The position numbers and the translations under genes are program-made. A DNA stretch of 64,000 nucleotides. It comes from Alphaproteobacteria bacterium (lineage in GTDB: Bacteria; Pseudomonadota; Alphaproteobacteria; Sphingomonadales; Sphingomonadaceae). The notes beneath the pieces were generated by a model. The model had not been told where the DNA came from and ran no database searches. It worked only from the letters and a program-made list of their open reading frames with translations. Below, piece after piece: positions 646 through 39,674 of this stretch (the stretch's first letter is position 1; the number at the start of each line of letters is the position of its first letter). The stretch spans positions 186,001 to 250,000 of the forward strand of contig JAHJIJ010000034.1 of the NCBI GenBank assembly GCA_018823325.1. Direction: 5' to 3'.

Positions 646-674
646 CGTCATTCCCGCGAACGCGGGAATCCAGT
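646..674. repeat. REP-like palindromic repeat, family A, left copy
   Basis: This 29-bp sequence is repeated in perfect inverted orientation at 998-1026. Each copy is itself a palindrome: 9-bp arms ATTCCCGCG and CGCGGGAAT around AA (TT in the other copy). The two copies tightly bracket the GIY-YIG gene; this one ends 12 bases before its ATG. No target-site duplication is visible outside 646/1026. Confidence 0.9.
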
Positions 675-686
675 AGCAACGTTGCG

Positions 687-998
687 ATGAGGCGCATCGT
701 TGATCCTTACGTCTATCTGCTGGCGTCGCATCGCAATGGCACACTCTATCTGGGTGTGACGTCCAATCTGACGCAGCGTATTGCTCAGCATTGCGCGGAG
801 ACGTTTGGCGGCTTCACGGCGCAATATGCAGTCAAACTGCTGGCCTGGTATGAGCAGCATGCCACGATGGAGAACGCGATTTTACGAGAGAAGCAGATCA
901 AGAAATGGCGCAGAACCTGGAAACTTGATTTGATCGAACAGGTAAAGCCGGATTGTCAAAATCTTACCGTCAGCCTGGGCTTCTCACCGCCAGGTTGA
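687..998 (+). CDS. small GIY-YIG domain nuclease inside an inverted-repeat doublet
   Basis: A 103-residue protein consisting only of a GIY-YIG domain (UvrC N-terminal/YhbQ-like, COG2827 type). The GIY element is degenerate (VYLL, residues about 9-12) and the YIG element reads YLG (about 21-23). The catalytic arginine is in the QRIAQH segment and the metal-binding glutamate in ILREKQIKKW. The frame stays open upstream to 567, but that part would translate the repeat itself (SFPRTRESS), so I start at the ATG at 687. No clear Shine-Dalgarno precedes it. The stop codon shares its last base with the right-hand repeat. Third positions are visibly less GC-rich than in neighbouring genes, which fits acquisition. 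A homologue with the same architecture is at 24364-24645. Its substrate is unknown; cutting of the flanking repeats is only a hypothesis. Confidence 0.85.
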   Translation: MRRIVDPYVYLLASHRNGTLYLGVTSNLTQRIAQHCAETFGGFTAQYAVKLLAWYEQHATMENAILREKQIKKWRRTWKLDLIEQVKPDCQNLTVSLGFSPPG

Positions 999-1026
999 CT
1001 GGATTCCCGCGTTCGCGGGAATGACG
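998..1026. repeat. REP-like palindromic repeat, family A, right copy
   Basis: Exact reverse complement of 646-674 over 29 bp. Its first base is the last base of the GIY-YIG stop codon, so gene and repeat are physically fused. The pair defines a 381-bp unit (646-1026). Confidence 0.9.
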
Positions 1027-3530: not shown

Positions 3531-4142
3531 ATGCCCATGATCCGGACTGCCTGCATTGCGGCCATTCTTACGACCGGCGCGCTTGCGCCGATCCAGAGCG
3601 CCAGCGCGACCGTCAATCTGAACGCGCGCATCGAGCTGCTGACCAACATCCTGCGCAACGACGCCAGCTTCTCTCAGCGCGATTTCAGCTTTGCGCTCAA
3701 GCGCGGCGGCGGACGGGAAATGATGTTCAAGGGCATTTCCGGCGTGCGCAGCTTCAACAATTATGCGCTGCTGAACAGCTGGCTGACCGATCATGTCGAT
3801 TCCAAGAGCGTGTTCGAGGGTGGCTCGTACAAGTTCACGCACTCGGTGCTGAACAGCTATTTCACCAGTCCCGCCCCCGCCGCGACAGTGACGGAGCCGA
3901 CGCCGAGCGTGTTCGAAGGCGGCAGCTACAAGTTCACGCATTCCGTGCTGGACAGCTATTTTGAAGAGCCGACCGAGCAGAAGGTCGTGGCGCAGTCGGC
4001 AAGCGCCGAGCCGCTGATGCGGGCGATGATGGCACCGCCACCGCCCATTCCCGAGCCGGCGACCTGGGCCATGATGATCGGCGGCTTCGCGCTGGCCGGC
4101 GTCGCGCTGCGCGCCCGCCGGATGCGCACGCGCCTCGCCTGA
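3531..4142 (+). CDS. PEPxxWA-CTERM sorting-domain protein with an internal 19-residue duplication
   Basis: A 203-residue secreted protein of unknown role. Residues 1-26 form a signal peptide ending near ASA. The C terminus has the sphingomonad PEP-CTERM signal: PEPATWA, then a short hydrophobic segment, then an Arg-rich tail (RARRMR). This is recognised by the exosortase/EpsH sorting system. In between, residues 93-111 and 126-144 are near-identical copies of a SVFEGGSYKFTHSV-type unit. AGGA lies just upstream, and the ATG could be 3531 or 3537. The gene sits on the plus strand between minus-strand cobS and cobT, so it looks inserted into that pair. No exosortase is in the window. Function is not recognised beyond surface or extracellular sorting. 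Confidence 0.85.
   Translation: MPMIRTACIAAILTTGALAPIQSASATVNLNARIELLTNILRNDASFSQRDFSFALKRGGGREMMFKGISGVRSFNNYALLNSWLTDHVDSKSVFEGGSYKFTHSVLNSYFTSPAPAATVTEPTPSVFEGGSYKFTHSVLDSYFEEPTEQKVVAQSASAEPLMRAMMAPPPPIPEPATWAMMIGGFALAGVALRARRMRTRLA
3807..3863 (+). repeat. 57-bp in-frame tandem unit, copy 1, in the PEP-CTERM gene
   Basis: Encodes residues 93-111. The second copy is at 3906-3962, with a 42-bp spacer. The protein copies differ at one residue (Asn to Asp) while several synonymous sites differ, so the duplication is not very recent and the protein sequence is conserved. Confidence 0.85.
3906..3962 (+). repeat. 57-bp in-frame tandem unit, copy 2, in the PEP-CTERM gene
   Basis: Encodes residues 126-144, partner of 3807-3863. 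It is followed by an acidic spacer and the Pro-rich lead-in to the PEP-CTERM signal. Confidence 0.85.
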
Positions 4143-24304: not shown

Positions 24305-24340
24305 CCTCCCCCACCGTTCGCCCTGAGCTTGTCGAAGGGC
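24305..24340. repeat. REP-like repeat, family B, left copy of the GIY-YIG doublet
   Basis: 36 bp matching 24651-24686 in inverted orientation at 35 of 36 positions, with a perfect 28-bp inner part (24313-24340). The core CCCTGAGCTTGTCGAAGGG is an imperfect palindrome. The same core occurs at 39582-39611 and 39645-39674. It ends 23 bases before the GIY-YIG start codon. Confidence 0.9.
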
Positions 24341-24363
24341 TGTTCTTTCTTCAGGCTCTCGCC

Positions 24364-24645
24364 ATGACCTTCTGGACCTACATGTTGCACTGTCGAGGCG
24401 GTGCTTATTATGTGGGGCACACTGATGATCTGGAGCGCCGGGTCGCTGAGCATCGGATGGGTCAGATTCCTGGATTTACCCAGGATCGACTGCCAGTCAC
24501 GCTGGTCGGGTCGGATGCATTTGGCACCGGCATTGAAGCGCTCGAAATGGAGCGGCGCATCAAAGGCTGGTCGCGAGCTAAGAAAATGGCGCTTATTCGT
24601 GGCGATTTGGATGCCATATCCGCGCTTGCAAAGGACAGAAAGTAA
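24364..24645 (+). CDS. small GIY-YIG domain nuclease inside an inverted-repeat doublet (second copy of the architecture)
   Basis: A 93-residue, single-domain GIY-YIG protein. It reads TYML in place of GIY (residues about 5-8) and YVG in place of YIG (15-17). The catalytic arginine is in ERRVAEH and the glutamate in EMERRIKGW. It is a diverged homologue of the protein at 687-998: the same segments line up in the same order. It fills nearly the whole space between family B repeats, with 5 bases from its stop to the right copy. The start has no strong Shine-Dalgarno. Third positions are less GC-rich than in the flanking genes. It could instead be a host gene that happens to be trapped between repeats; the repeated architecture argues against that. 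Confidence 0.87.
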   Translation: MTFWTYMLHCRGGAYYVGHTDDLERRVAEHRMGQIPGFTQDRLPVTLVGSDAFGTGIEALEMERRIKGWSRAKKMALIRGDLDAISALAKDRK

Positions 24646-24650
24646 GGACG

Positions 24651-24686
24651 GCCCTTCGACAAGCTCAGGGCGAACGGTTGGGGAGG
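24651..24686. repeat. REP-like repeat, family B, right copy of the GIY-YIG doublet
   Basis: Inverted partner of 24305-24340 (35 of 36 paired). The outer edge GAACGGTTGGGGAGGG reaches the last bases before the stop codon of the ribbon-helix-helix gene, whose coding end carries a similar sequence at 24699-24713. Confidence 0.9.
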
Positions 24687-39581: not shown

Positions 39582-39674
39582 CCCGTCCGCCCTGAGCTTG
39601 TCGAAGGGCTGCTTTTCTTTCTCTCGGACGAAGAAGAAGCAGGACAGCCCTTCGACAAGCTCAAGGCGAACGGG
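39582..39674. repeat. REP-like doublet, family B, without a gene
   Basis: Arms 39582-39611 and 39645-39674 pair at 28 of 30 positions around a 33-base spacer. The sequence is the same family as the repeats flanking the GIY-YIG gene at 24364-24645, and the inner edges (GGGCTG then T-rich; AGGACAGCCC) also resemble that unit. It sits between the converging 3' ends of the phytase and queF genes. It could fold as a hairpin and act as a terminator. Confidence 0.88.

What the first reader, a model, noticed from the sequence alone, without database searches (positions are those of the whole stretch)
646..1026. GIY-YIG nuclease gene fused to a perfect 29-bp inverted repeat: candidate new REP-mobilising element (unit 1)
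Seen: a 103-residue single-domain GIY-YIG gene (687-998) lies between perfect inverted copies of a palindromic repeat (646-674, 998-1026), and the stop codon shares a base with the repeat. There is no other cargo. Known: RAYT tyrosine transposases are flanked by REP palindromes and mobilise REPIN doublets. Inference: here a GIY-YIG nuclease takes the RAYT's place, nicking a palindromic hairpin. Unit 2 repeats the design with unrelated repeats, which argues against chance. I know of no description of such an element but cannot search.
Basis: partly seen in the sequence, partly recalled or inferred. Interest (0 to 1): 0.85.

Follow-up and report, generated by a model that had tools for sequence, protein, structure and literature searches.

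The report
GIY-YIG nuclease gene inside a REPIN
A tiny gene for a DNA-cutting enzyme sits between two copies of a short hairpin-forming repeat, and relatives of the gene in many bacteria sit beside repeats of the same class, which makes the enzyme a strong candidate for the missing mover of this widespread family of scattered bacterial repeats.

Summary
The genome holds 26 copies (13 each way), mostly as inverted doublets. By structure they are 'CGTC REPs', which a 2013 survey (PMC3733652) says 'apparently lack a dedicated transposase'. Of 75 untruncated homologous loci from a protein search, 43 have such a REP within 200 bp on both sides and 20 on one; 145 faux genes in the same loci give 0 and 3. 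In six congeneric genomes the ~380-bp unit recurs with unrelated flanks, homology ending at the REP borders. Occupied and unoccupied sites occur in Azospirillum, Sphingobium and Sinorhizobium; a deletion derivative lies 5.5 kb away. Protein lineage tracks REP sequence. Within the genus, REP number tracks gene presence (12 of 14 gene-less genomes have none); at order level it does not significantly. No Y1/RAYT transposase was found in the host genome. I conclude that the GIY-YIG protein is the dedicated, probably mobilising, nuclease of CGTC REPs. Binding, cutting and copying are inferred. Nine searches of an open-access library showed no description; preprints were not searchable.

The parts
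646..674 (+). left CGTC-tagged REP (CGTC tag, 8-bp stem, 4-nt loop, CCAGT tail)
687..998 (+). GIY-YIG nuclease gene, 103 aa, stop TGA 996-998
998..1026 (-). right CGTC-tagged REP, perfect inverted copy of the left one; A998 shared with the stop codon
646..1026 (+). the whole 381-bp unit; homology with six congeneric units starts and ends here (within 9 bp)
24316..24340 (+). unit 2, left repeat of another family (70 genomic copies at up to 3 mismatches)
24364..24645 (+). unit 2, second small GIY-YIG gene (93 aa)
24651..24675 (-). unit 2, right repeat

Best explanation
The unit is an autonomous member of the CGTC class of REP/REPIN elements: an inverted pair of CGTC-tagged hairpins whose spacer holds the gene of their own nuclease. 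The small GIY-YIG protein recognises the REP as an extruded hairpin with an unpaired 5' CGTC tag and CCA tail, plus some stem sequence, and cuts there. Host repair or replication then copies the gene unit, or gene-less doublets, into new and mostly intergenic places. Shown here: physical linkage in many lineages, the unit at unrelated sites in related genomes, sites with and without the unit, a deletion derivative, protein-repeat co-variation, conserved putative active-site residues, more synonymous than non-synonymous change in five pairs, and no Y1 transposase found in the host. Inferred: binding, cutting, the copying route.
For: Linkage: 43 of 75 loci have a REP on both sides and 20 on one, faux genes 0 and 3 of 145. 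Unit recurs with unrelated flanks in six congeneric genomes. Unoccupied sites: Azospirillum, Sphingobium, Sinorhizobium. Deletion derivative. Protein-repeat co-variation: Mantel r 0.34, 0 of 5000 permutations as high; loop class 9 changes against at least 11 in 200 shuffles. REP number against gene presence in the genus. No Y1_Tnp match in the own genome, and Y1 presence unrelated to REP number in 56 genus genomes. Residues Y10, Y21, G23, R31 and E68 invariant in 23 proteins (their role as active site is recalled). Hairpin pairing 6.84 of 8 against 5.11 with swapped halves.
Against: No biochemistry. 12 of 75 loci have no REP by the detector (8 of these show some other inverted pair of score 17 or more). 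Order level: 6 of 16 against 10 of 43 genomes, P 0.33; G099 has 32 repeats and no homologue at E 1e-8, and G041 has 5. 17 of 77 gene-bearing genus genomes have no repeat of the window type. Many units sit at one locus in 14 or 6 species, as expected of a resident gene. Junctions are not base-exact. Phylogeny is not corrected for in the counts.
Confidence: 0.75

Rival explanations
1. The protein is a DNA-repair or structure-trimming nuclease (UvrC-like back-up, cruciform cutter). It sits among REPs because it copes with them or is regulated by them, and does not mobilise them.
For: Small COG2827 genes of Caulobacter were proposed as back-ups of UvrC, one with an SOS box (PMC1839093, passages). 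Nearest folds after UPF0213 are Slx1 and UvrC (weak matches). Long residence at one locus in 14 species.
Against: A host repair gene need not travel as a REP-bounded block to unrelated sites, occur in several copies each with its own REP type in one genome, or track the stem sequence of its neighbours.
Confidence: 0.1
2. The gene is a homing-type parasite that inserts into REPs; the REPs are its target, not its ends, and are moved by something else.
For: GIY-YIG is a homing-endonuclease fold (PMC1564403, passages). In Azospirillum and Sinorhizobium the gene lies between whole doublets. REPs are known targets of insertion sequences (PMC1525189, search listing only). Two Sphingobium plasmids have one palindrome where others have the unit.
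Against: Congeneric units share REPs plus gene but no flank. The two arms of L004 share a variant not seen exactly at any other of the 37 listed copies in that genome. Repeat number goes with gene presence in the genus.
Confidence: 0.08
3. Another enzyme acting in trans (RAYT or another transposase) moves both the REPs and the gene unit.
For: The 2013 survey considered a broad spectrum of transposases (PMC3733652). 25 of 91 genomes searched have a Y1 transposase.
Against: No Y1_Tnp match in the own genome at E 1e-5 (98.5% complete). In 56 genus genomes, 14 with Y1 average 4.1 repeats, 42 without 5.6, P 0.70. No target duplication of 3 or more bases in 65 doublets. Other transposase families were not searched for here.
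Confidence: 0.05

Closest known systems
CGTC-tagged REPs (PMC3733652; includes Neisseria dRS3 and Rickettsia RPE-4/6 according to that paper)
   Same: CGTC tag, 8-bp stem starting A-T, 4-5-nt loop, CCA tail, head-to-head doublets, mostly intergenic
   Different: The paper found no dedicated enzyme; here a gene lies inside the doublet
RAYT (TnpA-REP) with GTAG-type REPs/REPINs
   Same: Small nuclease gene flanked by the palindromes that occur as doublets elsewhere in the genome
   Different: Unrelated enzyme (GIY-YIG, not Y1/HUH) and another tag (CGTC, not GTAG)
Small stand-alone GIY-YIG proteins (UPF0213; COG2827 'UvrC-like' genes)
   Same: Size, single domain; the nearest solved structure is UPF0213 protein BH0048, 1zg2
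   Different: No REP link stated in the passages seen; proposed role was DNA repair (PMC1839093)
GIY-YIG homing endonucleases and Penelope-like retroelements
   Same: Selfish elements that use GIY-YIG chemistry (PMC1564403, passages)
   Different: No reverse transcriptase domain in this 103-aa protein; ends are CGTC hairpins; flanks differ between related genomes
MITEs of insertion sequences
   Same: Gene-less doublets and a deletion derivative beside an autonomous unit
   Different: No transposase domain in the unit, no target-site duplication in 65 doublets

Membership tests
CGTC-tagged REP super-family | CGTC tag, 8-9-bp stem, 4-5-nt loop, CCA-like tail | tested here: met
   definition from PMC3733652
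CGTC-tagged REP super-family | Many copies, mostly head-to-head doublets | tested here: met
   26 copies: ten short doublets with starts 52-60 bp apart, the deletion derivative, the unit, two singles
RAYT / GTAG REP system | Y1 (HUH) tyrosine transposase | tested here: not met
   The protein matches only GIY-YIG in Pfam; no Y1_Tnp match in the own genome at E 1e-5
RAYT / GTAG REP system | GTAG tag at the foot of the hairpin | tested here: not met
   Tag is CGTC
RAYT / GTAG REP system | Nuclease gene flanked by the palindromes it serves, with gene-less doublets elsewhere | tested here: met
   (position only; that it serves them is inferred)
GIY-YIG nuclease superfamily | GIY-YIG domain with conserved Arg and Glu | tested here: met
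   Pfam E 2.4e-15; R31 and E68 invariant in 23 proteins
GIY-YIG nuclease superfamily | Nuclease activity | not testable with these tools
   needs purified protein
GIY-YIG homing endonuclease | Residence at one cognate allele or in an intron or intein | tested here: inconclusive
   Window-type units have unrelated flanks, against it; other subfamilies keep one locus in 14 and 6 species; introns were not searched for
DDE-type insertion sequence or its MITE | Target-site duplication | tested here: not met
   0 of 65 doublets with 3 or more matching bases

The most novel reading that the evidence does not exclude
CGTC REPs, including those named dRS3 in Neisseria, are the non-autonomous progeny of a second, independent class of REP-mobilising elements found in several phyla and driven by a stand-alone hydrolytic GIY-YIG nuclease acting on DNA hairpins: a bacterial transposable system without any transposase, convergent with RAYT/REPIN.
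Probability: 0.62. Interest if true: 0.93.

Novelty: new variant of a known kind. Interest (0 to 1): 0.86.

Why it matters
CGTC REPs were reported in five phyla, and the 2013 survey left open what moves them. This gives a named, testable enzyme. If true, REP/REPIN parasitism arose twice with unrelated nucleases, a common family of small 'UvrC-like' genes gets a role, and a mobile unit of about 380 bp works with a hydrolytic nuclease in place of a transposase. Because enzyme lineages track their hairpins, they also form a natural set of candidate hairpin-specific nucleases.

Tried and rejected
Chance: rejected. Link only because REPs are common: rejected by faux genes in the same loci. Segmental duplication as source of the second copy: the deletion derivative shares only the unit plus 6-7 border bases on each side. 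A Y1 transposase as mover. A known RNA family: no Rfam match at 500-1300. Phage origin: no tblastn match in the phage collection. Base-exact unoccupied site of a window-type unit: G032 lacks the unit at the L036 site but the intergenic DNA is diverged; at the group B locus L196 keeps one REP and L211 shows neither REP nor gene, without exact junction. REP-doublet presence/absence inside the 14 syntenic loci: none recognised; a 54-bp insertion in L055 was not examined. NCBIfam: no family. The third sequence had wrong coordinates and is not used. The REP detector misses some degenerate stems and odd tails (for example L247, L053, L223), so one search is a lower bound.

Rows dropped before counts: 5 of 80 loci (truncated). 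For one search I gave 16 of the loci and 25 of those (L161, L166, L171, L176 left out by hand; L154 is the window locus), 80 and 5 from the plasmids; proteins with stops fell out, leaving 116, of which 104 had a REP. Searches also leave out proteins under 75 residues (so L004 and L006, and unit 2, are not in the tree); one search thinned 102 to 84 at 80% identity. In one search, L001 and L033 are one locus, L044 was read in a wrong frame, and L005 is a 643-aa frame (probably uvrC, not scanned).

Papers: PMC3733652 abstract, sections 6 and 15, first part of 17, and passages; PMC1564403, PMC1839093, PMC10969869 passages only; others as search listings. That no description was found rests.

Full report
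WHAT IS THERE. The window (G000:C33:186001-250000) holds at 646-1026 two perfect inverted 29-bp arms and between them one gene, a 103-residue GIY-YIG protein. Each arm folds as a hairpin: 5' CGTC unpaired, 8-bp stem, 4-nt loop, CCAGT unpaired. The genome carries 26 copies with up to 3 mismatches, 13 in each direction, reversed control pattern 0: ten head-to-head doublets with starts 52-60 bp apart, one pair 141 bp apart (the deletion derivative below), the window unit, and two single copies. Several doublets share an inner sequence. This is the CGTC class of REPs of Di Nocera, De Gregorio and Rocco 2013 (PMC3733652: abstract, sections 6 and 15, first part of 17, passages; [quoted passage not shown]

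LINK BETWEEN GENE AND REPEAT. I searched with proteins and then looked at flanks. Of five small GIY-YIG genes in the own genome, four lie in an inverted pair (window unit, unit 2, L004, L006), each with its own palindrome; the fifth (L002) has a CGTC REP on one side. Repeats of the L004/L006 type number 37 and the unit-2 repeat 70, at up to 3 mismatches. Of the other 75, 43 had a CGTC-type hairpin within 200 bp on both sides, 20 on one side, 12 on neither; 145 faux genes in the same loci gave 0, 3 and 142. Eight of the 12 negatives show some inverted pair of score 17 or more; L095 and L100 show nothing of note. The record titles name Alpha-, Beta-, Gamma- and Deltaproteobacteria, Planctomycetota, Anaerolineae, a Bipolaricaulota bacterium, a Halobacteria archaeon and Neisseria gonorrhoeae; many are metagenome bins, so the rarer groups need care. 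Azospirillum lipoferum and Novosphingobium aromaticivorans, both named in the 2013 paper, carry the gene with CGTC hairpins at its sides (strains 4B and DSM 12444); on plasmid pNL2 the two 29-bp arms are perfect and the right one starts at the base after the annotated gene end.

THE UNIT AS A BLOCK. Units of six genus genomes (L034, L035, L036, L037, L038, L050) share with the window locus only the unit: the match starts 0-9 bp before the left REP border and ends 0-5 bp past the right one, and about 1.45 kb of flank on each side has no match at E 1e-8; L036 and L037 share one locus with each other. In the own genome, 5.5 kb before the unit, lies a copy of about 170 bp with both REPs and both gene ends but the middle deleted (88.5% and 85.7% identical), a natural step from autonomous unit to gene-less doublet. 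Occupied and unoccupied sites: A. lipoferum has doublet-gene-doublet between sufB and sufC; A. ramasamyi, A. oryzae and strain B510 have no such insert there. Of 11 Sphingobium plasmids covering the fnrL side of the locus, 7 have the unit, TYG64 and TYG74 have one merged palindrome, TYG65 and TYG72 neither. Sinorhizobium C101 has the gene within about 835 bp where S. meliloti Ak57, with 95% identical flanks, has about 33 bp; Ak57 has a gene of its own elsewhere. Intergenic divergence prevents base-exact junctions, and gain versus loss is not proven for each case.

LONG RESIDENCE TOO. Fourteen species hold a unit at one shared locus and six at another; in one of those six (L045) the gene is inverted relative to its flanks. 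In the five pairs compared, synonymous against non-synonymous codon differences are 13/0, 3/0, 35/6, 17/9 and 33/15, so the protein is under purifying selection.

CO-VARIATION. Over 84 non-redundant proteins, protein distance and stem distance correlate (Mantel r 0.34; best of 5000 permutations 0.21); the nearest protein has a stem within 1 of 8 mismatches in 51 of 84 cases against 30.6 expected, highest of 2000 shuffles 45. On the tree of 113 proteins (102 with a REP) loop class changes 9 times against mean 15.8, minimum 11 in 200 shuffles, stem type 48 times against 59.5, minimum 56. The tree has 97 columns and many unresolved forks. In it L002 of the own genome falls in a starred clade of 12 whose REPs nearly all have CTTG/CTCG loops (the one chosen for L112 does not), and the window protein in a group of five with ATTCCCGC or ATCCCCGC stems. 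Arms chosen only by arm-to-arm similarity (82 arms, 44 loci) still pair within themselves: 6.84 of 8 pairs against 5.11 after swapping halves, highest of 300 swaps 5.48. Part of this may be shared descent of hosts; paralogues with different REPs in one genome argue against that being all.

COPY NUMBER. In the same 150 genomes, 91 of them in the genus: gene absent, 12 of 14 without repeat (the others 1 and 5 copies); gene present, 60 of 77 with at least one; mean 7.3 against 0.4; Spearman 0.65. In the 59 other genomes of the order: 6 of 16 against 10 of 43, P 0.33; G099 has 32 repeats without a homologue at E 1e-8. G034 has 59 repeats with only a weak full-length hit; pieces of a window-type unit lie on its short contigs. 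None of this is corrected for phylogeny. Y1 transposases do not explain the numbers: none found in the own genome; 14 genus genomes with one average 4.1 repeats, 42 without 5.6.

MECHANISM. Committed view: the enzyme reads the extruded hairpin with its free CGTC foot and CCA tail and cuts it; the host copies the freed or broken element elsewhere. In favour: stems vary while tag and tail stay (the detector itself asks for GTC and a C in the tail) and the stems pair. In 65 doublets the strand outside the tag is G-poor, with a pyrimidine in 89% at -1, and there is no target duplication, as for elements that move as single strands (recalled). The nearest folds after UPF0213 (E 6e-4) are Slx1, which acts on branched DNA, and UvrC, but weakly (E 0.04-0.15; model pLDDT 75). 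Binding, cutting, strand choice and copying route are inference.

COMPARISON AND NOVELTY. It works like RAYT/REPIN but is not a member: the Y1 transposase and the GTAG tag were tested and are absent. The repeats fit the CGTC REP class. Nine searches of an open-access library showed no paper that ties GIY-YIG genes to REPs; subscription papers and preprints were not covered, so an existing description cannot be excluded. The role seen in print for the small bacterial genes is a proposal of DNA repair in Caulobacter (PMC1839093, passages).

Noticed in passing
window 24316-24675: Unit 2: a second small GIY-YIG gene between inverted copies of another repeat (GTTCGCCCTGAGCTTGTCGAAGGGC), which has 70 genomic copies at up to 3 mismatches and no CGTC tag: perhaps a third repeat class with its own GIY-YIG enzyme.
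   Followed up: partly
window 39585-39671: An inverted doublet of the unit-2 repeat without a gene.
   Followed up: no
L127 (Planctomycetota), upstream of the gene: Four CGTC REPs in tandem in the same direction, 33 bp apart, unlike the usual head-to-head pairs.
   Followed up: no
L045 against L043, L048, L049, L057, L058: At a shared locus the gene segment is inverted relative to its flanks in one of six species, perhaps by recombination between the inverted REPs.
   Followed up: partly
L233 and L234 (Sphingobium TYG64, TYG74): One merged palindrome where others have the whole unit: left half of the left REP joined to the right part of the right REP, as a deletion between ACCCCGGG repeats would leave.
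   Followed up: partly
L112 and L116: REPs of different stem sequences but the same tag and tail stand together around one gene.
   Followed up: no
window 3806-3961: A 57-nt direct repeat (86% identical, 99 bp apart) inside an ORF (3531-4142) that ends in a PEP-CTERM-like stretch (the name is recalled, not scanned).
   Followed up: no
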